Below are positions 1,078 to 16,782 of a DNA stretch of 64,000 nucleotides, piece after piece (the first letter of the stretch is position 1; every line of letters begins with the position of its first letter). The position numbers were made by a program, and so were the translations under genes. The notes under the pieces were generated by a model. That model was given only the letters and a program-made list of their open reading frames with translations, was not told the DNA's origin and did not search any database. This DNA comes from Mycobacterium sp. ITM-2016-00317 (GTDB lineage: Bacteria > Actinomycetota > Actinomycetes > Mycobacteriales > Mycobacteriaceae), in assembly GCF_002968295.1 (NCBI RefSeq), contig NZ_CP134399.1, positions 124,001 to 188,000 on the forward strand. Reading direction: 5' to 3'.

Positions 1078-2448
1078 ATGTCGGCCGACTATGACCGGCT
1101 CTTCCACTCCCCGGATGCCGTCCGACCGGCCGACGAGGAACCCGGGCGCGACGCCGCTGTCCCCCCGGGGAATGCACCCAACGGCGACGCCACCCCGCCG
1201 CCGATGCCGGCGGCGGCTCCGCGTACCCAGACCGCGCAGGCGCCACCGTCCTGGCAGACCGAGGTGATGAGCCAGGTCAGCGACGTGCAACCGCCTCCGC
1301 AGGCGACCCCCCAACAGCGCGTTCCCAACAACGGGATGATGCGGGCTCCGCAGTCGGCACCGCACACCGGTGCCCGCCACGAGCAGCGCCCGATGCCGGC
1401 GCCCGCGCAGCGTCCGGCCCCGGCCCCGGCCCCGTCGCCGTCGCCGTCGCAGTTCTACGGCGAGAACACCGACCCGCGACACGCGGCGGCGCCGACGTCG
1501 GCTGCCGCGATGGGCAACCACCGGGCGATCGACGCCCTGTCCCATGTCGGGGTGCGGTCCGCGATCAAGATGCCGTCCCAACGGGGTTGGCGGCACTGGC
1601 TTTACGTGATGACCCGGATCAACCTCGGTCTGTCGCCGGACGAACTCTACGAACTCGACCTGCACACCAGGATCCGGCGCAACGCCCGCGACTCCTACCA
1701 CATCGGTGTCTTCGGCCTCAAAGGCGGCGTCGGCAAGACCGCGGTGACGGTCGCGCTGGGATCGGCGCTGTCCGACATCCGCGGAGACCGGATTCTGGCC
1801 ATCGATGCCGACCCGGACGGCGGCAACCTCGCCGATCGCGCCGGCCGCCAGTCGGCGGCGACCATCGCGGACCTGCTGTCGGACAAAGAGCTGAAGCGCT
1901 ACAACGATATTCGCGCCTACACGAGTATGAACTCCGCGAACCTGGAGGTGCTGTCCTCCGACGAGTACAGCGCGGCCCGGCGTGAGTTCAACGACGAGGA
2001 CTGGCGTGCCGCGACCGAGATCGTCTCGCGCTACTACAACCTCGTTCTCGCCGACTGCGGCGCCGGGCTGTTCCAGCCGGGCGCGCGCGGTGTGCTGTCC
2101 ACGGTGTCGGGCCTGGTGATCGTGGCGAGCGCGTCGATCGACGGCGCGCGCCAGGCCGCGATCACGATGGACTGGTTGCGCCAGAACGGATATCAGGATC
2201 TGCTCGGCCGGTCATGCGTGGTGATCAACCACGTGACCCCGGCCAAGCCGAACATCGACGTCGAGGACCTCGTGCAGCAGTTCGAGCGGCACGTGTCACC
2301 GGGCCGGGTGATCGTGTTGCCGCACGACAAGCACATCGCGTCGGGCACCGAGATCCAGCTCGGGCTGCTCGGCAAGACCTTCCACCGCAGGATCGTCGAG
2401 CTCGCCGCGGCGCTGTCCGACGACTTCGACAGGCTCGAGCGGCGTTGA
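1078..2448 (+). CDS. espI: EspI-like ESX-1 protein with MinD/ParA-type ATPase domain
   Basis: 456 residues. The N-terminal part (about 1-150) is proline- and alanine-rich and probably disordered. The C-terminal part is a SIMIBI/ParA-like P-loop domain with a deviant Walker A, GLKGGVGKT, near residue 215, followed by a LAIDADPDGGNLADRAG switch region. Its place between esxA and eccD1 matches Rv3876 (EspI), which is longer (about 666 residues), mainly in the proline-rich part. EspI has been reported to lower ESX-1 secretion when ATP is low. The ATG follows a GAGAGG ribosome site. The stop overlaps the start chosen for eccD1. Confidence 0.9.
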   Translation: MSADYDRLFHSPDAVRPADEEPGRDAAVPPGNAPNGDATPPPMPAAAPRTQTAQAPPSWQTEVMSQVSDVQPPPQATPQQRVPNNGMMRAPQSAPHTGARHEQRPMPAPAQRPAPAPAPSPSPSQFYGENTDPRHAAAPTSAAAMGNHRAIDALSHVGVRSAIKMPSQRGWRHWLYVMTRINLGLSPDELYELDLHTRIRRNARDSYHIGVFGLKGGVGKTAVTVALGSALSDIRGDRILAIDADPDGGNLADRAGRQSAATIADLLSDKELKRYNDIRAYTSMNSANLEVLSSDEYSAARREFNDEDWRAATEIVSRYYNLVLADCGAGLFQPGARGVLSTVSGLVIVASASIDGARQAAITMDWLRQNGYQDLLGRSCVVINHVTPAKPNIDVEDLVQQFERHVSPGRVIVLPHDKHIASGTEIQLGLLGKTFHRRIVELAAALSDDFDRLERR

Positions 2449-3971
2449 CCGCAACGGTAGCCCCTGCGACGTCGTCGGGCACCGCCCCGGGGCGCCCGTC
2501 GACCACCCGTGTCACGATCCTGACCGGCCGGCGGATGACCGATCTGGTGCTGCCCTCGGCCGCACCGATCGAGACCTACGTCGACGAGTCGGTGTCGGTG
2601 CTGGCCGACATCCTCGCCGACACGCCTCAGGATGTGTTGGCCGGCTTCGACTTCAAGGCCCAGGGCGTATGGTCGTTCGCGCGGCCGGGGGCGCCGCCGA
2701 TCAAGCTGACCGACTCCCTCGATGACGCTGGCGTGGTCGACGGATCGCTGCTGACCGTCGTATCGGTGAGCCGCACCGAGCGGTACCGGCCACTGGTCGA
2801 GGACGTGATCGACGCGATCGCGGTGCTCGACGAGACCCCCGAGTTCGACCGGGGCGCGCTGTACCGGTTCGTCGGCCTCGCGCTGCCGTTGACCGCCGCG
2901 ATGATCACCGTGGTGGCGGTGCTGTCCTGGGCGTCGACCGGCCGCGACTGGTGGTGGGCGGTGGCGCTCGGGGTGCTGGGCATCGTGCTGATGGGCGCGA
3001 GCACGCTGGCGCAGAAGCGGTTCGACAACGTGAACATGGCCGAGAGCCTGCTGGTGGCGTCGATCGTCACCCTCACGGGGGCCGTGGTGTTGGCGGTACC
3101 GCTGCCGGAGGGAGTGACTTCCCTGGGGGCGCCGCAGGTCGCCGGCGCTGCCGCGCTGGTGTTGTTGCTGGTGCTGGGCACCCGTGGCGGTCCGCGTCGG
3201 CGGGCGGAGGTCGCGGCGTTCCTCGCGGTCGTCGCACTGGCGTTGACGATCGCCGCCGCCGCGTTCGGCTACGGCTGGAACGACTGGGTTCCGCCGGGGG
3301 CCATCGCTTTCGGGCTGATCGTGGTGACCAACGCGGCGAAGCTGACGGTGGCCGTGGCGCGGATCGCGCTGCCGCCGATCCCGGCGCCGGGGGAGACGGT
3401 GACCAACGACGAGCTGCTGGATCCGGTGACGACCATCGATGCCTCGGAGGAATCCGAGACATGGCAGGCGATCATCGCGTCGGTGCCCAGTTCGGCGGCC
3501 CGGCTCACCGAGCGCAGCCGCCTGGCCAAGCGCTTGCTGATCGGGTTCCTCAGCGCGGGCGCCCTGATCCTGGCGGTCGGCTCGGTCGCCGTGATCGTGC
3601 AGGGCCATTTCTTCGTGCACAGCATGGTCGTCGCCGGGCTGGTGACGATGCTGTGTGGCTTCCGGTCGCGGCTCTACGCCGAGCGATGGTGTGCGTGGGC
3701 GCTGATGGCGGCGGCGGTGGCGATCCCGACGGGGATCACGGTGCGACTGTGCCTCTGGTACCCCGACAAGGCTGGGCTGCTGCTGGCCGGGTACACGGCG
3801 CTGGCGCTGGTGGCGATGATCATCGTCGGTGCCAGTGACGGTGTGCGCAGGATCTCGCCGGTGACGAAGCGGATCCTCGAGTTGTTGGACGGGGCGACCA
3901 TCGCCGCGGTGATCCCGATGCTGCTGTGGATCGCCGGGGTGTACGACGTGCTGCGAAACCTACGGTTCTAG
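2445..3971 (+). CDS. eccD1: EccD1, multi-spanning ESX-1 membrane channel component
   Basis: EccD is the most hydrophobic part of the type VII secretion complex: an N-terminal ubiquitin-like domain followed by about eleven membrane helices. Residues 1-110 here contain the conserved TRVTILTGRRMTDLVLP start of the ubiquitin-like part. The rest is a series of hydrophobic segments ending in LLWIAGVYDVLRNLRF, very close to the M. tuberculosis EccD1 ending. A TTG start at 2445, overlapping the espI stop, gives 508 residues against 511 in Rv3877. No upstream ATG or GTG fits, and the ATG at 2535 would cut into the conserved domain. Confidence 0.95.
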   Translation: MTATVAPATSSGTAPGRPSTTRVTILTGRRMTDLVLPSAAPIETYVDESVSVLADILADTPQDVLAGFDFKAQGVWSFARPGAPPIKLTDSLDDAGVVDGSLLTVVSVSRTERYRPLVEDVIDAIAVLDETPEFDRGALYRFVGLALPLTAAMITVVAVLSWASTGRDWWWAVALGVLGIVLMGASTLAQKRFDNVNMAESLLVASIVTLTGAVVLAVPLPEGVTSLGAPQVAGAAALVLLLVLGTRGGPRRRAEVAAFLAVVALALTIAAAAFGYGWNDWVPPGAIAFGLIVVTNAAKLTVAVARIALPPIPAPGETVTNDELLDPVTTIDASEESETWQAIIASVPSSAARLTERSRLAKRLLIGFLSAGALILAVGSVAVIVQGHFFVHSMVVAGLVTMLCGFRSRLYAERWCAWALMAAAVAIPTGITVRLCLWYPDKAGLLLAGYTALALVAMIIVGASDGVRRISPVTKRILELLDGATIAAVIPMLLWIAGVYDVLRNLRF

Positions 3972-3979
3972 GACGCGAT

Positions 3980-4687
3980 ATGACGACAGGCGGCACCCCT
4001 CCACCGCTCTCGGTTGATCCCGAGGCGCTCAGCGCGGCCGGTAACGCGCTGTCGAGTTCGGCGGAGCAACTGCCGGAGGCGCCGGACCCGTTCATGCCGG
4101 TCGGGGCGGACCCGTTGTCGGCGGCGATCATCGGACAGATTCCGGCGATCGAGACGCCGATCATGACCCAGCTGCCATTCATCAAGGCGCAGGCGACGAC
4201 CACCGCGGAGAACGTGGTCAACGCCGCCCAGGCGTATGCGGCCACCGACGCCCGCAACGGTGCCAACATCACTCAGCAGATGCAGAACGTTCCGGAGGCG
4301 CCCGCAACGGGTTCCGGCGGCGCGGGCCCGGCCTCGGCCGTCGGCGGCGCCGGCTCGGCGGGACAGACGATGAGCTCACCCATGCAGATGGTGGGGCAGA
4401 TGGCGCAGATGCCGATGCAGGCGATGGGAGCGGTGGCCGCAGTGCCGCAGGGTGTCATGCAGGGCGCCCAGCAGGCCGGGCAACAGGTGCAGCAGATGGT
4501 GGGTCAGTTCAGTCAGGGCGACGGCGAGCACACCGGCACGGTCGATGGCGCACCGATATCGGAGGGTGCCGCCGCGGCGGAGCCTGATGCCGAGCGTGCG
4601 CCGGAGGCCACCGAGAAGTCCGACGAGGGCGACGAACGTCACGGCCGTCATCGTGCCGCGGAACAGGACGACAGGATCGATCTATGA
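3980..4687 (+). CDS. espJ: EspJ-like ESX-1 secretion-associated protein
   Basis: 235 residues. The first 120 residues look like a helical PE/WXG-related secretion domain (VDPEALSAAGNALSSSAEQLP; YAATDARNGANI). A Gly/Ala/Gln/Met-rich linker and an acidic charged tail follow. Position immediately after eccD1 and overall composition match Rv3878 (EspJ). The YAATD sequence fits the YxxxD export motif. The last four bases overlap the next gene (ATGA), so the two are probably translated together. It begins the variable part of the ESX-1 locus. No enzymatic domain is seen. Confidence 0.8.
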   Translation: MTTGGTPPPLSVDPEALSAAGNALSSSAEQLPEAPDPFMPVGADPLSAAIIGQIPAIETPIMTQLPFIKAQATTTAENVVNAAQAYAATDARNGANITQQMQNVPEAPATGSGGAGPASAVGGAGSAGQTMSSPMQMVGQMAQMPMQAMGAVAAVPQGVMQGAQQAGQQVQQMVGQFSQGDGEHTGTVDGAPISEGAAAAEPDAERAPEATEKSDEGDERHGRHRAAEQDDRIDL

Positions 4688-4995
4688 CCGCTCCACTCGA
4701 AGTCGACACCAGCGTGCTGCGTCGGGTGGGCGGCGACTTCGCCTGTGCCGGCGACCAGATGGCGGGCATGCAGGCAGACGCCCCGCTGGGCGACGCCGCT
4801 GCCGGTGTGCCGCAGTCGCAGACCGCCGCGGCATGTCGCGCGGCGCAGACCACCATCGCCGACGAGATGACCAGGGCTGCCGGCGAAGCGCGCACCTACG
4901 GCGCGGATCTGCGCAGTGCGGCCGACAGGTACGACGTCACCGACGAGGCATCCGGCGCGACCCTCGACGGGGTCGACATCCCGGTGCCTCGGTGA
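4684..4995 (+). CDS. small EspC/EspF-like ESX-1 secretion-associated protein
   Basis: This 103-residue protein is predicted to be largely helical (LEVDTSVLRRVGGDFACAGDQM...). It carries a YxxxD/E-type export motif near its end (Y83-D87-E88) but no WXG. Size and pattern fit the EspC-like / DUF2580 group of type VII secretion targets, which are usually cotranscribed with a larger Esp partner. Here the ATG overlaps the espJ stop, so EspJ may be that partner. The gene converges on the minus-strand gene that ends at 4996. M. tuberculosis has no gene that I recall at this exact place. Confidence 0.65.
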   Translation: MTAPLEVDTSVLRRVGGDFACAGDQMAGMQADAPLGDAAAGVPQSQTAAACRAAQTTIADEMTRAAGEARTYGADLRSAADRYDVTDEASGATLDGVDIPVPR

Positions 4996-6015
4996 CTACC
5001 TCCTGACAGCTCGGCAGGCGTGGTCGGTCAGGGATTGCAACCGTGAAGCAGCGTCGTCGAGATGGGTGTCCGGCAGACCGTAGCTCGGGAGCGCCAGGGC
5101 GAAGGCGCGCCGGTAGTGAGACGACAGGGCGGCGAAGTCGGCGGCGATCAGATTGCCGCTGAGCAACCCGAGTAGCTGAGCTTGATCGGCGTTCTGCTGC
5201 ATGATGCGGGCGGTCTTGTCGCCGAGTTCACGTAGCTCCGGAGGACGCTGCGAGGCAGGCACATTCGGGTCGTGCCGGTCACGCCATTCGCGGGTCTGCG
5301 CGTCGTAGTCGATCACCATCGCGGTCCATTCGTCGCAGAAGGCCGAAGGGCCGGCGATGAATCGGGGCGGCCGGTCCGGGTCGGCCAGCGGGCCTTCCGG
5401 AACCGGGGGAGGACCTGGCAAGACCAGGCCAGAACGATCGGCTGCCGCCCCGAAATCGATTGCGGCGCAGATCGACCGGATCGCGTCAGCGGCACTGGTC
5501 GCGGTCAGCGCCAACTGGTCTGCCGCGGGGCGGTAGTCATCGACGGCGTCGGCGTAGGCGTGCCAGTAGGCGATGGACTGTTCGTACAGCTCGCGCATGA
5601 CGCGGTGGGGGGTCTGCTTGGCCAGGGGAACAGTCCTGTCCGCGGCCTCTCGCATCGCGGCGGCGACCGCCTGGAACTGCCGGCGCTGCTCCGGTGTCCA
5701 CTCGCTGCCGGGAATCGCGGCGTCACGCCGGTGCCAGCCGTTGCCGAGTTCGGTGTTCAGCGCGGCGGTGACCCGTTCCCATTCCGGGCAGGTGGGTTCC
5801 TCGGTGACGATGGAGACCGGGTCTTCGTCCCGTGCGCTCGCGAACTCGGCGGCGTCGACCGTCGGGCCAGGCGGAGGTGCCGGTGCTGCAGGCGGGGGCG
5901 GTGGGGCGGAATCGCGATCCGAGATCCACAGTGTCGCGACCACGAGGCCGACGATTGCGAGGAGGGCGCCTGCCAGGAGTACTGGGTTGAGACGTCTCGG
6001 CTGAGTCATCTCCAC
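4996..6015 (-). CDS. membrane-anchored protein of unknown function, ESX-1 variable cassette (paralogue A)
   Basis: 339 residues. One N-terminal membrane helix (about residues 12-32, LLAGALLAIVGLVVATLWI) is followed by a Pro-rich spacer, so the bulk should lie outside the cytosol. Four cysteine sites are shared with the protein at 8214-9182 (TCPEWE, SICAAI, AFCDEW, HACRAV), as is the motif TPHRVMRELYEQSIAYW. The four cysteines suggest two disulfides. It is the last gene of the minus-strand run, 9 bases after espK. The first start is GTG at 6015; an ATG at 6009 is also possible. No known domain is recognised. A role in ESX-1 or its mating-identity function is inferred from position only. Confidence 0.8.
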   Translation of the reverse strand: MEMTQPRRLNPVLLAGALLAIVGLVVATLWISDRDSAPPPPPAAPAPPPGPTVDAAEFASARDEDPVSIVTEEPTCPEWERVTAALNTELGNGWHRRDAAIPGSEWTPEQRRQFQAVAAAMREAADRTVPLAKQTPHRVMRELYEQSIAYWHAYADAVDDYRPAADQLALTATSAADAIRSICAAIDFGAAADRSGLVLPGPPPVPEGPLADPDRPPRFIAGPSAFCDEWTAMVIDYDAQTREWRDRHDPNVPASQRPPELRELGDKTARIMQQNADQAQLLGLLSGNLIAADFAALSSHYRRAFALALPSYGLPDTHLDDAASRLQSLTDHACRAVRR

Positions 6016-6024
6016 CGACGGTAC

Positions 6025-8214
6025 CTACACGGGGGAATCGGCGCCGACGGCGTCGGCGATGAGGACTTCGAGGTGCTGCCAGTACACCCAGTTGGCGATG
6101 GCCCGGCGTTGATCCGCCGGCTCAGGTGAGGTGTGGGCGTGGTAGAGCGCGAGCTCCTGAGCATGGGCGGCGTAGGCGATGAACGCTTTCAGGTGAGGGA
6201 CGCTGCGCTGGGGGTTGGTGCTCATGAGCGGTTTGGCCACTTCGAACCACAGCCGTGCGGTGTCGTCGGCGGGGGCTGCGATGTCGGTGCCGGCTGGTGG
6301 CAGCAGGTCGTTGAGGCCGAAATCGCTGACAGCGCTGAGTTGTTGTGCCGCAGCCGGTGAGATCACTTCCAGGCGGCTGCGGCCGTGTGTCAGGCCGGTG
6401 TCAGGAATGTCGTCCTGGGTCAGGATGATCTTGGCGACGCCGGGATCGAAGTTGGCGAACTGATCTTCGGTGGCGACGATCGCGCGCAGCTGGTGGTTGT
6501 GATGGTGGGCCCAGCTCTGCACAGCCAAGATCGGGTAGGTGGCCCATTGTGCGCGTTCGGCGGCGGGGATCGATTCGTCGGCGGTGGCCATCCGTACCTG
6601 ATCAGGCAGGTGGACTCCCTCGGGGATGTAGGCCAGCCCGTAGCTGTTGGCGACGACGATCGTGCCGTCGGTGGTGACGCCGGTGACCCAGTAGAAGCCG
6701 AAATCCATGACGCCGACATTGAGTGCTGCGCCGACGTGGCGGGCCTGCTGCAGCGGGTCGCTGCCGTTGGTCTTGCGGCGCAGAGCCGCTGCGGTGGATG
6801 CGGACGCGATCGCGTCCCGTTCGGCGCGGGCTGCGGACACCGGAATCGGCGCGGCTGCGGTGGCGTTGGTGTTCGCGGTCGACATGGGCGCGACTCCCGG
6901 GCCCAGGCCGGCCGCAGCGGCGCCGGGAGCGGCTGGCGGAGGCGGTGCGGGCGGGGCAGGGGTGGTCGGCGGAGCGAGCGGAACCGGGGGTGCTGCCGGT
7001 GGACCGCTCGACGCGGGCGGGCCAACGGGTGCGGGTCCTGCCGAGCCACCGCCGGAAACGCCTGCGCCGCCAGCGGCCGCGCCGCTCGAAGGTGAAGCGG
7101 CTGCGGCCGGTTGGCTGCTGGGTGGAGGCGTTGGCGCCGGCGCCTGGGCGGGGGCGGGGGCGGACGAGGCGAGTGGGGGCGCCTGGTTGGTGAACGACTG
7201 CATCGGTGTGGCCCTTGAGGCTTTCGCCGCCTCGGCCGGCGCGGTTGCGCTGGCCGGCTGACCGGCAGCCGCCCCGGTGGGGGATGCGGTGCCTGTTGTC
7301 GGTGAGCCGGAGGCGGAAGACGGGCTGGCTGTGGACGATGCCGACGGGGAGCTTGGGCTGCCGGAAGAGGGACTTGAGGCGCCTAGCGGGCTGGACGGCG
7401 AGGAGGGGCTTGAGGGGGAGCTGGGGCTGGCGACGGTGCTCGCGACGGTGCTCGCGCCTCCGGGTCCGCGACCATCGGCCACTGGAGCTGCTGACGCAGA
7501 GGATTCGGTCGGCGAAAGATACGGCGCCGGATCACCTCCTCGACCGCCTGCAATTCTCTGGGCGGGCGGGACCGCGTCCGGTCTGGGCACGTAAGCGCGG
7601 GGATCCGCGCCCCCGGCGTTCGAGCTTGCAAACATCTGAATTGGAGTATGTGGCGCTGGCGTTTGGGTGGGTGACGGCGGACTTGGTGGTGCCGGGATCG
7701 AAGCCGGTGGGGCAGTGTAATGAGAGAAGTCCGCAACGTTCGTAATTCCACCGCTGACAGCAGTGCTATTAACGGAGTTTTGCCAAGCTACGTACATCTT
7801 GATAAGCACGTTCTTTGTCGCTTCGGAGTAATCAGGTGACGCGAGTAGCTCCTGGATTACGGTCTGCGCCATCGCCAGGTTGCCGTTGACTTGAATCTTG
7901 ACGCTTTGTATATGGCTGGCAACCATGGCGTAGTAGCTATACGCCTTTGCGCAATGGTCTTTGAGAGCGCTCATAGCTGCGACACGTTGCTGCGAAGCTG
8001 ACTCTCCGGCGGACGCCGCACTTCCAGACCAAATACCCTCGTCGAAGATGTGGACATTCTGCTGCTGCCAGGCGGTCGCAACAGCGTGTACGCCATTGCG
8101 GATACGCAGCATTTCTTGTGCACGCGCATGAAGGAGGTCTTCGTCGAGATCCGGCCACCCTGATGGCTCCGTCATCTCGTCGATGAACAGTCCTGCAATC
8201 TTTTCGATGCCCAT
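6025..8214 (-). CDS. espK: EspK-like ESX-1 secretion-associated protein
   Basis: 729 residues, the same length as Rv3879c (EspK). Residues 1-165 form a helical domain resembling the WXG100/PPE secretion fold (IWSGSAASAGES is the WXG-like turn). About 165-460 is Pro/Ser/Ala-rich low complexity with SSPSSPSSPSSP runs. The C-terminal 270 residues form a folded domain (VGVMDFGFYWVTGV onward). EspK acts as an accessory factor for EspB in M. marinum and M. tuberculosis. The ATG at 8214 overlaps the TGA of the upstream gene (TGATG). GC content falls sharply in the first third of the gene, counted as 58 of 120 bases at 7741-7860 against 45 of 60 at 7081-7140, which suggests a mosaic origin. Confidence 0.88.
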   Translation of the reverse strand: MGIEKIAGLFIDEMTEPSGWPDLDEDLLHARAQEMLRIRNGVHAVATAWQQQNVHIFDEGIWSGSAASAGESASQQRVAAMSALKDHCAKAYSYYAMVASHIQSVKIQVNGNLAMAQTVIQELLASPDYSEATKNVLIKMYVAWQNSVNSTAVSGGITNVADFSHYTAPPASIPAPPSPPSPTQTPAPHTPIQMFASSNAGGADPRAYVPRPDAVPPAQRIAGGRGGDPAPYLSPTESSASAAPVADGRGPGGASTVASTVASPSSPSSPSSPSSPLGASSPSSGSPSSPSASSTASPSSASGSPTTGTASPTGAAAGQPASATAPAEAAKASRATPMQSFTNQAPPLASSAPAPAQAPAPTPPPSSQPAAAASPSSGAAAGGAGVSGGGSAGPAPVGPPASSGPPAAPPVPLAPPTTPAPPAPPPPAAPGAAAAGLGPGVAPMSTANTNATAAAPIPVSAARAERDAIASASTAAALRRKTNGSDPLQQARHVGAALNVGVMDFGFYWVTGVTTDGTIVVANSYGLAYIPEGVHLPDQVRMATADESIPAAERAQWATYPILAVQSWAHHHNHQLRAIVATEDQFANFDPGVAKIILTQDDIPDTGLTHGRSRLEVISPAAAQQLSAVSDFGLNDLLPPAGTDIAAPADDTARLWFEVAKPLMSTNPQRSVPHLKAFIAYAAHAQELALYHAHTSPEPADQRRAIANWVYWQHLEVLIADAVGADSPV

Positions 8215-9182
8215 CAATTAGCTCCGACTGCTCGGCAAGCGTGACCGTTGACCGCGACCAGCTCGGCTGCCGCATTCGCCAGATAGCCGTCCGCTGGCAC
8301 ATAACTAGGGATCGCTTGCACGAATGCCCTGCGGTACTGAGCGGATAGCGATGCAAAATCGCCGAACGTCGCATTCAGACTCTGTACGCCCAGGTTCTGC
8401 ATCTCACCTGCACTGGCTCCCATGGGCAGGGGAAGCCTCTGCCATATTGCTCGTTGTTCAGGTGACCACTGGTAGCTGGGAATATTCGGATCTGATTCGA
8501 GCCATTCTGCGGTCTCGCTATCGAATGCCTCAGTAGCTGAAATCCAGGCACTGCAAACTGACAGCGGAGCGGTCAAGTACCGAGAGGGATGGGCCGGATC
8601 CTGCGGGGCTTCAACACTCAAGGGTGGACTCGTCGGAAGGACAAACGGTGCTCGCGACGCAGCAGAGCCATATGTAATGGCGGAGCATATGTACCCGATT
8701 GCATTCGAGGCGGCGGTAGCTACACGCGCGAGGTGGTCGTCGTTAGGGGAGTAAGTTGAGACCGAGTCGGCATAAGCGCGCCAATACGCAATTGACTGTT
8801 CGTATAGCTCTCGCATCACGCGGTGGGGAGTCAGCTTGGCTAATGCCACAGCTCCTTCGGCGGCGACTCGCATTGCATCCGCAACCGCCTCGTACTGTTT
8901 CCGTTGGTCGGAGGTCCAATCTGATGCCGGAACCGACGGATCCCGATCGTTCCACCCATCGGCTGCTTGTGCAGAGAACGTTTCCGAAATCGGCGCCCAC
9001 GACGCGCACGAAGCATCCTCGGTAATGATGTCGACTGGGCCGTCATCGCCGGCACTAGCGATATCTGACTTGTCGATTGCAGTCGTCGGCACGGAAGAAG
9101 CCACTGCGGGTCCCCCCGGGCCTGAGTCGCCGCGGACGACAAGCATCGTCGCGACGACCGTCAGCACGACGACGACTAGCAC
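8214..9182 (-). CDS. membrane-anchored protein of unknown function, ESX-1 variable cassette (paralogue B), 5' end interrupted
   Basis: 322 residues from a GTG at 9182, paralogous to 4996-6015. It shares the motif TPHRVMRELYEQSIAYW, four cysteine sites (SCASWA, YICSAI, VCSAW, HACRAV) and the ending QYRRAF...HACRAV. The GTG falls inside the membrane helix (LVVVVLTVVATMLVV). The frame stays open upstream for 14 codons to a TGA at 9225-9227 and then continues open to 9461, so the gene was probably longer and is split by a nonsense change. Base composition is clearly more AT-rich than the neighbours. Its function is unknown; the duplicated arrangement around espK is the main clue. Confidence 0.7.
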   Translation of the reverse strand: MLVVVVLTVVATMLVVRGDSGPGGPAVASSVPTTAIDKSDIASAGDDGPVDIITEDASCASWAPISETFSAQAADGWNDRDPSVPASDWTSDQRKQYEAVADAMRVAAEGAVALAKLTPHRVMRELYEQSIAYWRAYADSVSTYSPNDDHLARVATAASNAIGYICSAITYGSAASRAPFVLPTSPPLSVEAPQDPAHPSRYLTAPLSVCSAWISATEAFDSETAEWLESDPNIPSYQWSPEQRAIWQRLPLPMGASAGEMQNLGVQSLNATFGDFASLSAQYRRAFVQAIPSYVPADGYLANAAAELVAVNGHACRAVGAN

Positions 9183-9224
9183 CGCAAGCCCGACGAGGAC
9201 CCACTTGCCGCTAATGCTCGAATC

Positions 9225-9461
9225 TCAAGAGGCGGCCACCTGCTGGTCCGATTCCGTGGTGGGAAGGGGCCCGCCGAAGGAATCAGCGTGCGGTTCGCGA
9301 GGAGGTTGCGACGGCGGCCATTCCCCGGGAGGCGGCATAGTCACGCGACCCGATCCCGTTGGTGCCCGATCATCTCCAATCCCCTTTCGGGTCGCTGGCG
9401 ACCCGTTGTGTAGAGCATCAGCCGTCGTCCAATTCAGAGTACGAGAGGAACGACGAACCAA
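9225..9461 (-). pseudogene. probable N-terminal fragment of paralogue B, cut off by in-frame TGA
   Basis: The 78-codon open frame ends at the TGA 9225-9227 and is in the same frame as the gene ending at 8214. Its last part (MPPPGEWPPSQPPREP...) looks like the Pro-rich cytosolic arm that often precedes a membrane helix in mycobacterial proteins. Removing the stop would give one protein of about 415 residues. The true start is uncertain (GTG at 9461 or a later codon). A sequencing error at one base, a real nonsense mutation and TGA read-through cannot be told apart here. I see no gene in 9462-9539. Confidence 0.5.
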
Positions 9462-9539
9462 CTGTCGCTGATTTCGTACCTTTAATGGCCACAGTGCCCA
9501 CGCCCGAAAACCGCATTACCGAGACATTCACGGCCACTG

Positions 9540-9878
9540 CTACTCCGTATCTGGGATCTCAGCCGTGATCTCGGCGACCACCGCATCGATCCGCTCACGG
9601 TCGGCATCGATCGCCGCTGACGCTTCGGCACTCGCCTTGTGCAGCGCCTGGTTCACTCGCTGTTCGACCTCCTCGGCGCCGAGACGCAGCAGGCCGTCCT
9701 CGATGTACACGTCCTTGAGCCACTGGTGGCCGTTGAGCGTCACTTCGACTGTGTCGTTCTCATCGGAAGCCGTGAACGATGACGTCGCCATCTTGTCCAG
9801 CTGCTCGTCCATCAGTGCTTGCAGCCGCCGCGCTTGGCGAAGTACCGCAGCCACTTCCGGATGCATGTCGTCGGTCAC
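9540..9878 (-). CDS. espL: EspL, YbaB/EbfC-like ESX-1-associated protein
   Basis: 112 residues, matching Rv3880c (EspL, about 115). The layout is an N-terminal helix, a short beta region (TVEVTLNGHQWLKDVYIEDGLLRLG) and a C-terminal helix, as in the YbaB/EbfC nucleoid-associated family. EspL has been reported to stabilise EspE, EspF and EspH and affect ESX-1 secretion. The GTG start overlaps the espB stop (GTGA), so translation is coupled to espB. Composition returns to the high GC of the core locus here. No break is seen. Confidence 0.9.
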   Translation of the reverse strand: MTDDMHPEVAAVLRQARRLQALMDEQLDKMATSSFTASDENDTVEVTLNGHQWLKDVYIEDGLLRLGAEEVEQRVNQALHKASAEASAAIDADRERIDAVVAEITAEIPDTE

Positions 9879-11517: not shown

Positions 11518-12915
11518 TCATGGCTCGAGCACCATCTGGTAGCGGCTTTCCTCACGCGGATTGATCAGTCGGATCGGCAGTTGCTTGTGCCGCGGAGTGG
11601 CGATGAAGTTGTCTCGCAACGTGACCCGTCCGACACCCGGGTGCGGACGCAGGTACGTCGTCGCATTCGGCCACGTCACCTTCGCCACTTGGTCGATCCG
11701 GGCATTGACGAAGCCGGCGAACTCCCCGAACTGTGGCTGCAGTGTCACGACCGCGCCCGCGGCCGCCGACCTCACCACGAATTGGGTGAACAACCGCGCG
11801 TTACCGAGGTTGATGCTGACATCGACGTCGTCGAACGGCATGTACACCGGATAGCGGTCCGCGGTCTCGCCGACCAGCACCCCGGCGGATCCGATGGGCA
11901 ACTCGTAGTGCCGGTCGCTGACCGGCGTCTGGCCCAGCAGCGCAGCGCGCTGACCGCCGTACAGACACGAAAAGCCGCGCGGTGTCGAGGGATTCGCAAG
12001 TGTGGTCAGCAGCACGGTGGTGGTGGGCGCCGAGCCTGGTGCGATCCGAACCCGGGTGAGCGTGTGATCGGCCCGTGCCGACCACCACACGTCCGGCCCG
12101 CCCGGGGCGTGGTAAGCGGCGGTGAAAGTACTGCGGCCTTTGACCATCGACCACGTTTCGCGTTCGAAGCTGATCTCGGTGGCGCGGTCGAAGTCGTCGA
12201 AGCTGCGCGCGGGCCGGGCGTCGACGCCCTTGCCTGCCAGGTGGTCGGCGATCCGCGTGGTTGACGACACCAGGTACTGCGCCAGCCCGGCAACTCCTTC
12301 CCCACGCCGCAGGGCGGACTTCCGCGTCTTGTCCGGATCCGCCCGCAGCACGATCCAGGTCCGGCGGTTCGCCGGCGCCGGGTACGGGCCGACGACCTGC
12401 TCGTAAAGGGCGACGAGCGCAGCCGGCGCGGTCTTACCCACCCGGTAGCCCGCCGACACGATGTCGGCCTCCAGATCCGGGCAGTACGCGGTGAGCAGCT
12501 CTTCCACGAGCCGGGTATCGACGACGTCGTCGGTGGCTGCAGCGCCGTTGACGATCACCGTCGGGGTGAACGGTCGCGAAATGAGCTCGATCACCGACAC
12601 CACGTAGTCGTCCTGCCAGCGCAGCGCGACGTGGTCGCCGGGCAGCACCGTGGCGCCGACGGCAGGTTCGGACGGTCGCGGCGGGGGCTGCCTGTGGCGA
12701 CGCCGCCATGCGAAAAGTGCTGCCACCCAACCGCTGGGGCGTCGGCCGCGGATCGTGACCACCGATCCCAGACCGATCAGCACCGCCAGGGTGATGCCCA
12801 GCCACATCAGGTCCAGCTGGGCGAAGACCAGCAGGACCGCCGGGATCAGCGTCGCCGCCCACAGCGCGTGGCCGGTGGTGAAGCGCAGTCCGAAAATGGA
12901 CACCAACCTGTTCAT
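11518..12915 (-). CDS. eccE1: EccE1, ESX-1 membrane complex component
   Basis: 465 residues against about 462 for Rv3882c. Two N-terminal membrane helices (residues about 15-60, HALWAATLIPAVLLVFAQL and MWLGITLAVLIGLGSVV) are followed by a cytosolic domain, as expected for EccE, the peripheral subunit of the ESX inner-membrane complex. The gene overlaps mycP1 by four bases (ATGA) and lies 31 bases before the espB start, so mycP1-eccE1-espB-espL form one operon. The frame is intact throughout. Confidence 0.93.
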   Translation of the reverse strand: MNRLVSIFGLRFTTGHALWAATLIPAVLLVFAQLDLMWLGITLAVLIGLGSVVTIRGRRPSGWVAALFAWRRRHRQPPPRPSEPAVGATVLPGDHVALRWQDDYVVSVIELISRPFTPTVIVNGAAATDDVVDTRLVEELLTAYCPDLEADIVSAGYRVGKTAPAALVALYEQVVGPYPAPANRRTWIVLRADPDKTRKSALRRGEGVAGLAQYLVSSTTRIADHLAGKGVDARPARSFDDFDRATEISFERETWSMVKGRSTFTAAYHAPGGPDVWWSARADHTLTRVRIAPGSAPTTTVLLTTLANPSTPRGFSCLYGGQRAALLGQTPVSDRHYELPIGSAGVLVGETADRYPVYMPFDDVDVSINLGNARLFTQFVVRSAAAGAVVTLQPQFGEFAGFVNARIDQVAKVTWPNATTYLRPHPGVGRVTLRDNFIATPRHKQLPIRLINPREESRYQMVLEP

Positions 12916-14258
12916 CGGCGCCTCAATGCGCGCCGTGCCAGCGCCCCGGCACCGAGCAGCGCCGCCACCCCGCCGCTGACCGCGACCACCGCGGTGATCG
13001 GGGTGCGGTCGGGCGGAGGCACGTACACCGGCGGCGGGATCTCCTTGATGTTGTACGGGATCTCGGCCGGCCCCGGCGGGACCTCCCAGGTCAACGCCGC
13101 GACCGGGTCGATCACCCCGGCTCCCACGACGTTGTTCACCCCGCCGCCGGGATGCCTTGCGGTGGCGGTGATCCGGTTGATGACCTGAGCCGGCGTCAAC
13201 TCCGGGAAGCGTTGCCGGATGAGCGCGGCCAGGCCCGAGACGTAGGCCGCCGAGAACGACGTGCCGGCGATCGGGATGGGCCCGTCCTCGCCCTGTAACG
13301 CGTTGACCGGAGTGCCGTCGTAGCCGAGCGCGACGAGGTTCTCACCCGGGGCGGCGGCACCGACCCAGGGTCCCTGCATCGAGAAGCCGCTCGGCTGGCC
13401 GTTGGGCGCGATGCTGCCGACCGTGAGGACCAGCGGTGAGTACCAGGCCGGCGAGACGATGGTCTGTACCTGCTGCCAACCGCGCGGGTCGGCGGGGACG
13501 GCGGCGTCGGGCGGGGGGTTCTGCGAGCACTCGTTACCGGTGTTTCCGGCCGCGACGACGATCACCGAGGCCTTGACGTTGACGGCGTAGTTGATCGCGG
13601 CGCCGACGACGGCTTCGTTGATCGGGCGGGTTGTCTTGTAGCAGGCGGCCTCGCTGATGTTGATGACCTGCGCTCCCAGGTTGGCCGCGTGCACGATGGA
13701 GCGGGCCAAGCTACGCAGCGAACCCGCGGTCTGGGTCGCGTTCGGGTCGTTCGGATCATTGCGGGCACCGACCGGGGAGAAACTGTCCGACGTCTGGCGC
13801 AGAGACAGGATGCGGGCGTCGGGGGCCACGCCGACGAATGCGTCTGTCGGTGCGGGTCGGCCGGCAATCACCGCGGCGGTGAGCGTGCCGTGGGCATCAC
13901 AATCCGACATGCCGTTTCCGCCCTGATCGACGAAGTCACCGCCGGGTTCTGCGGGGACCCGCGCCGAGCCGTTCACCCCGGTGTCGATCACCGCGACGGT
14001 GATCCCGGCGCCTGTCGCGAACTTCCGGGCGTCGGTGAGCCGCAGGTAGTCGTTGGCCCACGGGCGGTCGGCGAAGTTCGAGTTCGGAAACACCGTCGGA
14101 GCTGCGCAGATCCGACGCTGCTCCATCGGCTGGTCGGGGCCCGTCTCATCGGGCGGGATGGCCGCCGGATCAATGATCGGCGGCTCGATGGCCCCTGCGG
14201 GCGGTGCCGTCAGGAGCACCAGCGACAGCGCGGCAATCAGCGCACCAATACGCCGCAC
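12912..14258 (-). CDS. mycP1: MycP1 mycosin, subtilisin-like ESX-1 protease
   Basis: 448 residues. A signal peptide (about 1-23, ALIAALSLVLLTAPPAGA) and a C-terminal membrane helix (about 420-443) anchor the enzyme outside the membrane. The catalytic triad is complete: D92 in VIDTG, H123 in DAHGT, S334 in GTSFSAAYVSG, with the oxyanion asparagine N239 in AAGNTGN. Mycosins are essential for ESX assembly, and MycP1 cleaves EspB. The GTG start follows a GGGGTGA ribosome site. The mature start contains the PWANDYLRL wrap-around sequence of mycosins. It is the first gene of the minus-strand ESX-1 operon, so that promoter should lie in 14259-14435. Confidence 0.96.
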   Translation of the reverse strand: MRRIGALIAALSLVLLTAPPAGAIEPPIIDPAAIPPDETGPDQPMEQRRICAAPTVFPNSNFADRPWANDYLRLTDARKFATGAGITVAVIDTGVNGSARVPAEPGGDFVDQGGNGMSDCDAHGTLTAAVIAGRPAPTDAFVGVAPDARILSLRQTSDSFSPVGARNDPNDPNATQTAGSLRSLARSIVHAANLGAQVINISEAACYKTTRPINEAVVGAAINYAVNVKASVIVVAAGNTGNECSQNPPPDAAVPADPRGWQQVQTIVSPAWYSPLVLTVGSIAPNGQPSGFSMQGPWVGAAAPGENLVALGYDGTPVNALQGEDGPIPIAGTSFSAAYVSGLAALIRQRFPELTPAQVINRITATARHPGGGVNNVVGAGVIDPVAALTWEVPPGPAEIPYNIKEIPPPVYVPPPDRTPITAVVAVSGGVAALLGAGALARRALRRR

Positions 14259-14796: not shown

Positions 14797-16782
14797 TCAG
14801 GTGGTGACGAGTTCGGGTTCGGCCTTCTCGCCGGACTTGATGAACTGTTTGGCGACGACGACGGCCAGCGCGGCCGCGATGGTGCCCGCGACCAACGCGA
14901 TGAGGAACCCGAGCTTGTTGTCGATGGCGAACAGCACGAAGATGCCGCCGTGCGGCGCGCGGGAGGTGGCGCCGAAGGCCATGCACAGCCCGCCGGTGAT
15001 CGCGCCACCGAACATCATCGACGGGATCACCCGCAGCGGATCGGCCGCGGCGAACGGGATGGCGCCCTCGGAGATGAACGACGCACCGAGCAGCCAAGCG
15101 GCCCGGCCGTTCTCCCGTTCCGGCTCGCTGAACAGCCGGGGCCGGACCGTGGTGGCCAACGCCAGCGCCAGCGGAGGCACCATGCCCGCGGCCATCACGG
15201 CGGCCATGATCTGGAACGACGCGGTGGTCGCAGCGGCCAACCCGGCAGTGGCGAACGCATACGCCGCCTTGTTGACCGGGCCGCCGAGGTCGAAGCACAT
15301 CATCAGCCCGAGGATGATGCCGAGGAAGACCGCCGAGGTGCCGGACATCCCGCTGAGCCAGTTGGTCAGGCCGGTGTTGATCAGCGCCAGCGGACGGCCG
15401 ACGAAGAAGAACATGATCAGCCCGACGAACAGCGACGCCCCGAGCGGGACGATGACCACCGGCATCAGACCCCGGAACCATTGCGGCACCTTGAGATTGC
15501 TGATCCACAGGGCGGCGAAGCCGGCGAGCACACCACCGACGATGCCGCCGATGAAGCCACCGCCGACCATCACGGCCAGCGCGCCGGCGGTGAAGCCGGG
15601 CGCGATACCCGGCCGGTCGGCGACGCCGAAGGCGATGTAGCCCGCCAGCGCAGGAACCAGGAAGCCGAACGCGAGACCGCCCAGGCTGTACAGGATCGCG
15701 CCCAGGTACTCGAGGAAGCCGCCCGGCGGCAGGTTGGTCAGCGAGTAGTTCAGCGCGATGTCGTTGCCGGTGTCGGCGATCTCGTAGCCGGCGAACAGGA
15801 AGCCCAGCGCGATCAGCAGCCCGCCCGCGGCGACGAACGGGATCATGTAGCTCACGCCGGTCAGCAGGATCTGGCGGGTGCGGGTGCCCCAGCCGACATC
15901 CCCCGACGGCGCATTCGACGAGGCGGCCGCCCCCGATCCCTCGACGCGGGCCGCATTCGGGTTGTCCGCGGCGGCAACGGCTTCGGCGATCATCTTGGCC
16001 GGCTCATTGATCGCCCGCTTGACCCCGGACGTGACGACGGGCTTGCCGGCGAAGCGGCCTCGGTCCTTGACGCCGATGTCGGTGGCGAAGATGACGGCGT
16101 CCGCCTTGGCGATCGTCTCGGACGGCAGCGGCGTGCTGCCCGAGGAGCCCTGCGTCTCGACGACCAGGTTCACCCCCGCCTCCTTGGCCGCGGCGACCAG
16201 CGAGTCGGCGGCCATGTAGGTGTGCGCGATGCCCGTGGGGCATGCGGTGATCGCGACGAGGTTCTTCGCGGGGCGCGTCTCGGCCGGCTTGTCCGCCGGA
16301 GCCGCCGCCGAAGCCGGGGCGGGATTCACCACGCCGTCGACCAGGCCGACCACCTCGTCGGCCGAGCCTGCTGCACGCAGCGAGGCCACGAAGTCCTTGC
16401 GCACCAACGCCCTTGCCAGGCTGGTCAGCAGCTTCATGTGCTCCTGGCCGCCCGACTCGGGGGCCGCGATCAGGAACACCAGGTCGGCGGGACCGTCCGG
16501 CGCGCCGAAGTCCACGCCGGGCTTGAGCCGGGCGAACCCGATGGTCGCGGTGTCCACGTACGGGGACCGGCAGTGTGGGATCGCGATGCCGCCGGGCAGG
16601 CCGGTGGCCGACTGACCTTCACGCGCCATCGCGGCGCCGACGAGTCCGTCGGCGTCGTTGGTGCGTCCCGCCGCGGCCAGCGCGCCGACCAGCCGGCTGA
16701 TGACGGCCTGCTTGTCCCCGTCGACGGTGACGTCGAGCAGCACGAGGTCGCGCGTGATGATGGGGGCTGCGGAGCTGGTCAT
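14797..16782 (-). CDS. fruA: fructose-specific PTS enzyme IIABC
   Basis: 661 residues with three fused domains. EIIA is at 1-150 with active His H70 in GIAIPHCRS. EIIB is at about 173-270 with phosphocysteine C181 in ITACPTGIAHTYMAA. EIIC is at about 300-640 with multiple membrane helices (GVSYMIPFVAAGGLLIALGF onward). It takes up fructose and delivers fructose 1-phosphate to the cytosol. The domain order and the EIIB motif mark the fructose family. It lies between fruK (23 bases upstream) and ptsH, in one operon. The frame is intact. Confidence 0.95.
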   Translation of the reverse strand: MTSSAAPIITRDLVLLDVTVDGDKQAVISRLVGALAAAGRTNDADGLVGAAMAREGQSATGLPGGIAIPHCRSPYVDTATIGFARLKPGVDFGAPDGPADLVFLIAAPESGGQEHMKLLTSLARALVRKDFVASLRAAGSADEVVGLVDGVVNPAPASAAAPADKPAETRPAKNLVAITACPTGIAHTYMAADSLVAAAKEAGVNLVVETQGSSGSTPLPSETIAKADAVIFATDIGVKDRGRFAGKPVVTSGVKRAINEPAKMIAEAVAAADNPNAARVEGSGAAASSNAPSGDVGWGTRTRQILLTGVSYMIPFVAAGGLLIALGFLFAGYEIADTGNDIALNYSLTNLPPGGFLEYLGAILYSLGGLAFGFLVPALAGYIAFGVADRPGIAPGFTAGALAVMVGGGFIGGIVGGVLAGFAALWISNLKVPQWFRGLMPVVIVPLGASLFVGLIMFFFVGRPLALINTGLTNWLSGMSGTSAVFLGIILGLMMCFDLGGPVNKAAYAFATAGLAAATTASFQIMAAVMAAGMVPPLALALATTVRPRLFSEPERENGRAAWLLGASFISEGAIPFAAADPLRVIPSMMFGGAITGGLCMAFGATSRAPHGGIFVLFAIDNKLGFLIALVAGTIAAALAVVVAKQFIKSGEKAEPELVTT

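What the first reader, a model, noticed from the sequence alone, without database searches (positions are those of the whole stretch)
3980..9540. Variable ESX-1 cassette: two paralogues flanking espK, at the mating-identity position
Between eccD1 and espL lie espJ, an EspC-like gene, and three minus-strand genes arranged paralogue A - espK - paralogue B. A and B share one membrane anchor, four cysteine sites and the motif TPHRVMRELYEQSIAYW, yet differ elsewhere. In M. smegmatis the ESX-1 genes in this interval were mapped as the locus that determines donor/recipient identity in distributive conjugal transfer. Two diverged, probably disulfide-bonded surface proteins around a secretion factor would suit a self/non-self recognition module. 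This is the best candidate here for a poorly described system.
Basis: partly seen in the sequence, partly recalled or inferred. Interest (0 to 1): 0.8.

Follow-up and report, generated by a model that had tools for sequence, protein, structure and literature searches.

The report
Mycobacterial self-identity (mid) locus, duplicated variant
A mycobacterium close to M. vaccae carries, inside its ESX-1 secretion locus, two relatives of what is very probably the gene that lets M. smegmatis cells recognise their own kin before exchanging DNA; here the two copies flank espK, and one has a stop codon in front of its membrane anchor.

Summary
Between eccD1 and espL lie espJ-like, EspC-like, and A-espK-B on the minus strand; A and B are 45% identical with four matching cysteines. 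The interval is the counterpart of the M. smegmatis mid locus. That A and B form a recognition pair is untested.

The parts
2535..3971 (+). eccD1, ESX-1 core; left border of the variable interval
   Evidence: TIGR03920 423 bits (on the longer open frame 2214-3971)
3980..4687 (+). espJ-like gene (counterpart of Msmeg0069 by position)
   Evidence: position after eccD1; tblastn to espJ-like genes in related loci, e.g. 30% over 206 aa in L017; no Pfam or NCBIfam family at its cut-off
4684..4995 (+). EspC/WXG100-like small protein
   Evidence: PF10824 22.3 bits, just below its cut-off of 23.5
4996..6015 (-). paralogue B: short tail, one membrane helix, two four-helix-bundle repeats, 4 Cys
6025..8217 (-). 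espK (ATG at 8214; listed from TTG 8217)
   Evidence: C-terminal part matches solved EspK 8ako_B, E 8.4e-81
6046..6759 (-). EspK C-terminal EspB-binding domain (residues 487-724), conserved
   Evidence: residues 431-730 are 73-86% identical in L005, L006, L007, L008, L009, L011, L018
7738..8217 (-). EspK N-terminal PPE-like WxG domain, variable, low GC
8214..9182 (-). paralogue A as an open frame from GTG 9182 (start lies inside the membrane helix)
9228..9338 (-). Pro-rich tail piece typical of the family, same frame as A
9225..9227 (-). in-frame TGA between tail piece and membrane helix of A
7501..9500 (.). low-GC block (EspK-N plus A), the GC minimum of the window
9540..9878 (-). espL (YbaB-like); right border of the interval
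   Evidence: PF02575 47.9 bits
10008..11492 (-). espB, beyond the border
   Evidence: PF21856 EspB_PPE 93.3 bits, PF18625 EspB_PE 53.7 bits
11518..14258 (-). eccE1 (11518-12915) and mycP1 (12912-14258), ESX-1 core
   Evidence: TIGR03923 268.7 bits, TIGR03921 386.1 bits

Best explanation
The interval is this strain's mid locus. A and B are members of the Msmeg0070 self-identity family: single-pass membrane proteins with a cytoplasmic tail and an outside-facing rigid rod of two homologous four-helix bundles, each closed by one disulfide. As in M. smegmatis, the variable protein encoded upstream of espK (A) is the likely identity label; cells with the same label would be recognised as kin and would not transfer chromosomal DNA to each other. 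A and the PPE-like N-terminus of EspK tend to be inherited as one block, while the EspK C-terminus stays more conserved because it must hold EspB. B is an old duplicate, present in the M. vaccae / austroafricanum / iranicum group, with a shortened tail and a slow rate; it may be a second label or a partner of A. Shown here: family, predicted architecture, duplication, correlated divergence, diversity among M. smegmatis proteins. Inferred: outside location, disulfides, block exchange, label function in this strain, role of B. The stop in front of A's anchor makes it uncertain that A works here; B may be the only intact copy.
For: Position: 50 of 76 Pro-tailed family members in the loci held are followed by an EspK start motif (25 not, 1 with short flank), 0 of 19 acid-tailed ones (6 of these with short flank); 160 of 4,710 random 700-nt segments of the same loci carry the motif. 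M. wolinskyi has eccD1-espJ-A-espK-espL, which fits Msmeg0068-0071 (that 0068 is eccD1 is recalled; 0069-0071 from PMC3706393 and PMC9040860). P0166 has one TM-like segment and 37 Pro in 367 aa; published Msmeg0070: one TM, 41 Pro in 388 aa. Fold: AF2 pLDDT 91, internal repeat hhalign 99.8%. Diversity: six proteins named M. smegmatis are 49-56% identical pairwise; a tree with them as one clade is rejected, AU p 0.0003. Correlated divergence: r(A, EspK-N) 0.73-0.82 against 0.22-0.49 with eccD1, eccE1, espL, espI; partial r given each of these 0.74-0.81 (n 28 for the first, 10-16 for the others). L008 against L011, both named M. iranicum: eccD1 90%, eccE1 92%, but espJ 64%, B 67%, A 66%.
Against: The sequence of Msmeg0070 itself was not retrieved, so the link to the tested gene rests on strain genomes, position and features. 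A is interrupted by TGA before its anchor. B shows dN/dS 0.11 against M. vaccae, the same as eccD1, not what a fast-changing label should show at short range. A cannot be compared with M. vaccae: that contig ends inside espK. Adjacency alone can produce the A/EspK-N correlation. EspK-C also follows A (r 0.58; partial 0.24 given EspK-N, and 0.42-0.58 given the core genes), so the signal is not confined to EspK-N. M. smegmatis strains carry paralogues, so part of the six-protein diversity may be paralogy. L008 and L011, though both named M. iranicum, are held as separate species. 25 of 76 Pro-tailed members lack an espK start downstream; members beside WXG100/PPE/PE genes and on plasmids may do something else.
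Confidence: 0.7

Rival explanations
1. A/B are ESX-1 accessory membrane proteins (for example a docking protein for EspK-loaded substrates); the high diversity follows adaptation to a changing EspK N-terminus and substrates, and the mating effect in M. smegmatis is a by-product.
For: A's distances follow EspK, its PPE-like WxG N-terminus above all; A and espK overlap by one base; the two family members outside ESX-1 whose neighbours were scanned (L024, L047) sit beside two WXG100 genes, a PPE and a PE gene, i.e. next to other T7SS substrates.
Against: Published: an insertion in 0071 did not change compatibility; insertions in MKD8 0070 or 0071 did not stop EsxAB secretion; identity persisted in eccCb1 and esxBA mutants (PMC9040860).
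Confidence: 0.2
2. A is a decaying copy left after a recombination event; B alone carries the function, and the locus is of no special interest in this strain.
For: In-frame TGA between tail and anchor; low GC of A and EspK-N suggests a recently imported block; a degraded B-like fragment lies elsewhere in the genome (L003).
Against: The remaining 322 codons of A are open, with all four cysteines; initiation at the GTG is possible; only one genome was available, so a sequencing error is not excluded.
Confidence: 0.25
3. A/B act in antagonism or defence rather than in mating, for example as a receptor and immunity pair for contact-dependent killing.
For: Duplicated, diverse membrane proteins in arrays (G049 and G183 with six copies each) resemble polymorphic antagonism loci; plasmid copies occur, and genes annotated Fic or Abi lie near plasmid relatives.
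Against: Pfam showed no toxin domain in the ten window proteins scanned; PADLOC gave one weak hit among four proteins (best E 0.0034 over 45 residues of B); the published phenotype is DNA transfer.
Confidence: 0.08

Closest known systems
Msmeg0070 / mid locus of M. smegmatis (Gray 2013, PMC3706393; Clark 2022, PMC9040860)
   Different: Here A-espK is inverted relative to eccD1, a second copy B follows espK, A's tail is cut off by a TGA, and an EspC-like gene lies next to espJ
EspK (Rv3879c) chaperone of EspB, PDB 8ako (PMC9811218)
   Same: C-terminal domain homologous (E 8.4e-81); N-terminal WxG motif
   Different: N-terminal PPE-like domain shares only 12-56% identity with the other 22 sequences compared and varies with A
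PPE proteins (PDB 2g38, 5xfs, 4kxr, 6uuj)
   Same: Predicted fold of EspK-N: the seven best Foldseek rows are all chains of PE/PPE complexes, of PPE length
   Different: E-values 0.05-0.2 only, 13-16% identity; a fold resemblance, not shown homology
Plasmid surface/entry exclusion proteins (TraS/TraT)
   Same: Outcome: identical cells do not exchange DNA
   Different: No homology according to PMC9040860; not tested here

Membership tests
Msmeg0070 (Mid) self-identity family | Encoded in ESX-1 between eccD1 and the espL-espB-eccE1-mycP1 block | tested here: met
Msmeg0070 (Mid) self-identity family | Directly upstream of an EspK with variable N- and conserved C-terminus | tested here: met
   A met; B lies downstream of espK instead
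Msmeg0070 (Mid) self-identity family | Sequence homology to M. smegmatis members | tested here: met
   P0166 (MKD8) to window A 50%, E 4.4e-90; that P0166 is MKD8_0070 itself is inferred, not shown
Msmeg0070 (Mid) self-identity family | One membrane helix with a Pro-rich tail | tested here: inconclusive
   B: helix, but short tail; A: helix, with the Pro-rich tail separated from it by a TGA
Msmeg0070 (Mid) self-identity family | Highly polymorphic within a species | tested here: inconclusive
   Six proteins named M. smegmatis are diverse, paralogy not excluded; this species not testable with one genome; B conserved against M. vaccae
Msmeg0070 (Mid) self-identity family | Determines conjugal compatibility | not testable with these tools
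   needs mating assays
EspK | C-terminal EspB-binding domain and N-terminal WxG | tested here: met
EspC (PF10824), gene 4684-4995 | Pfam gathering score | tested here: not met
   22.3 against 23.5 bits; hence only 'EspC-like'
PPE fold, EspK N-terminus | Fold match to solved PPE proteins | tested here: inconclusive
   best seven Foldseek rows, E 0.05-0.2, none at E <= 0.001

The most novel reading that the evidence does not exclude
A and B are a diverged label and reader pair made by one duplication: A (variable, inherited with EspK-N) is displayed as the identity label, while the slowly evolving B is a fixed partner that reads it on the neighbouring cell. The vaccae-austroafricanum-iranicum group would then have split into two genes what M. 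smegmatis does with one.
Probability: 0.12. Interest if true: 0.85.

Novelty: new variant of a known kind. Interest (0 to 1): 0.58.

Why it matters
The M. [quoted passage not shown] Here its probable family receives an architecture (tandem, probably disulfide-closed four-helix bundles), a range (1 of 76 genera in the order sample; 194 of 396 genomes sampled in the genus), sequences that do not group by species, and natural variants: duplicates, arrays, plasmid copies and different tails. That makes the open question of how mycobacteria tell self from non-self before exchanging DNA testable with defined ectodomains and species pairs.

Full report
What is there. The ESX-1 locus at the left of the window reads esxB, esxA, espI, eccD1, espJ-like and EspC-like on the plus strand, then B, espK, A, espL, espB, eccE1 and mycP1 on the minus strand (the name espL follows position as recalled for M. 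tuberculosis, espJ position and weak similarity between loci). A and B are homologous over their length (45%), each with one hydrophobic segment and four cysteines at matching places. A and espK overlap by one base and B follows 9 nt behind espK, so A-espK-B looks like one transcription unit (inferred). Nearest named relative in the loci held: M. vaccae NBRC 14118 (B 93%, eccD1 96%).

A has a stop in front of its anchor. Most ESX-1 family members read begin with a Pro-rich stretch, then a membrane helix. The same frame upstream of A encodes such a stretch, but a TGA at 9227-9225 lies between it and the helix; the genome search reports one TGA inside the match. As an open frame A starts at GTG 9182, inside the helix. 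Relatives L007, L008, L009, L011 and L018 have the uninterrupted arrangement. With one genome I cannot tell allele from sequencing error.

Family and range. A protein search with 46 aligned rows (44 relatives plus A and B) found 1,050 proteins at E <= 0.001 among the 7,995 candidates scored. The M. smegmatis MKD8 protein matched 194 of 396 genomes drawn from the genus at E <= 1e-20. In the order sample, 20 of 298 genomes matched at E <= 1e-20, all in 1 of 76 genera. Eight of 72,556 plasmids carry matches, two over at least 80% of the query; none of 50,697 phages matched B. Besides A and B, the window's genome holds one degraded B-like fragment.

Link to the mid locus. PMC3706393 (passages) mapped mating identity to Msmeg0068-0071 and/or 0076-0078. 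PMC9040860 (parts 1-5 of 7 read; passages) narrowed it to Msmeg0070, reinterpreted it as self-identity, and described a 388-aa Pro-rich protein with one predicted membrane helix, between Msmeg0069 and an Msmeg0071 that is variable at its N-terminus and conserved at its C-terminus. In M. wolinskyi and some other species the order is eccD1, espJ-like, A-family gene, espK. Family proteins named M. smegmatis lie on contigs whose lengths equal the published genomes of MKD8 (P0166) and Nishi (P0177). I did not retrieve Msmeg0070 itself. A 2024 review (PMC10906988, passages) repeats the kin-recognition reading. Searches for Msmeg0070, kin recognition, mid locus and self-identity (one search listed 20 of 31 papers, the others their whole result) showed by title no later paper on this protein's structure or family; subscription journals are mostly not held.

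Architecture. The AlphaFold model of B (pLDDT 91, pTM 0.83) is a membrane helix followed by two all-helical bundles, 76-187 and 225-336. Profile comparison shows the two bundles to be repeats (probability 99.8%, E 1e-28, 22% over 117 columns), with a cysteine at either end of each repeat, hence probable disulfides C76-C183 and C227-C334 (inferred; no distances measured). Of the helices, the third, with TPHRVMRELYEQ, varies least. No structural relative was found.

Variability and descent. In the best tree, A of the window groups with A of L007, L008, L011 (99/98) and B with B of L005, L006, L007, L008, L011 (100/100); A and B of the window as one clade are rejected (AU p 0.0001). So the duplication predates this species. 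The inverted A-espK arrangement is wider than B: L009, L018 and L012-L014 share it, and no B was found there in the stretches held. Six proteins named M. smegmatis are 49-56% identical to each other, are not one clade (AU p 0.0003), and one is sister to a M. goodii protein (100/99). This is what polymorphism older than the species would give, as expected for recognition loci, but paralogues within strains can give it too: two of the six (P0136, P0178) share the longest contig. Between L008 and L011, both named M. iranicum but held as separate species, eccD1, espI, eccE1 and espL are 86-92% identical, espJ, EspC-like, A and B 64-67%, the aligned part of espK 78%. Against: B against M. vaccae has dN/dS 0.11, as eccD1 and EspK-C; espJ has 0.31.

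EspK. Its C-terminus matches the solved EspB-binding domain (PMC9811218, passages). Its N-terminus has an invariant WxG in 23 sequences and a predicted fold (pLDDT 95.4) whose seven best Foldseek rows are chains of PE/PPE complexes, at E 0.05-0.2 only. Over 28 loci, distances of A follow EspK-N (r 0.73; partial 0.57 given EspK-C, 0 of 999 permutations); in the subsets with core genes (10-16 loci) r is 0.79-0.82 with EspK-N and 0.22-0.49 with eccD1, eccE1, espL or espI. EspK-C also follows A (r 0.58; partial 0.24 given EspK-N; 0.42-0.58 given the core genes). Physical linkage alone could explain this.

Context of the family. Of 124 members in the loci held, my script classed 76 as Pro-tailed (50 followed by an EspK start motif), 19 as acid-tailed (none) and 29 as other (4); loci were chosen by conserved motif or best score, so these are not random samples. 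Two members outside ESX-1, L047 (acid-tailed) and L024 (classed other), each lie beside two WXG100 genes, a PPE and a PE gene.

Mechanism. Most likely A-type proteins are anchored in the membrane with the bundle rod outward and serve as identity labels; identity of labels blocks DNA transfer (shown by others for Msmeg0070 in M. smegmatis; inferred here). There the identity effect persisted without ESX-1 secretion. The role of B and of EspK-N is open.

Verdict. Real and correctly placed; an already described kind of system in a new, duplicated variant, with new structural and evolutionary information on the family.

Noticed in passing
L003 (G000:C1:3254301-3257462): Degraded B-like fragment (about 50 aa, 51% to B) with stops around it, far from ESX-1 in the window's genome.
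   Followed up: partly
L158 5536-6345 and L159 5536-6351 (mycobacterial plasmids): Relatives with a single bundle, one membrane helix (by reading) and a different cytoplasmic part, each overlapping a small upstream gene of 77-94 aa; a gene annotated Fic lies upstream in L158.
   Followed up: partly
L157 13833-14987 (plasmid pTY66_01): Full-length family member on a 266-kb plasmid without annotated ESX core genes in the 29 kb read; a plasmid-borne identity label would resemble exclusion.
   Followed up: partly
L047 8034-10237, L024 7960-10239: Family members next to two WXG100 genes, a PPE and a PE gene (Pfam), i.e. beside other type VII secretion substrates.
   Followed up: partly
L148-L150 (G183) and L151 (G049): Repeated espJ-A-espK cassettes (G183) and an A-type array (G049), six A-type genes each.
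   Followed up: partly
window 14797-16782: A fructose-type PTS transporter gene (TIGR01427 352 bits) lies just beyond mycP1.
   Followed up: partly
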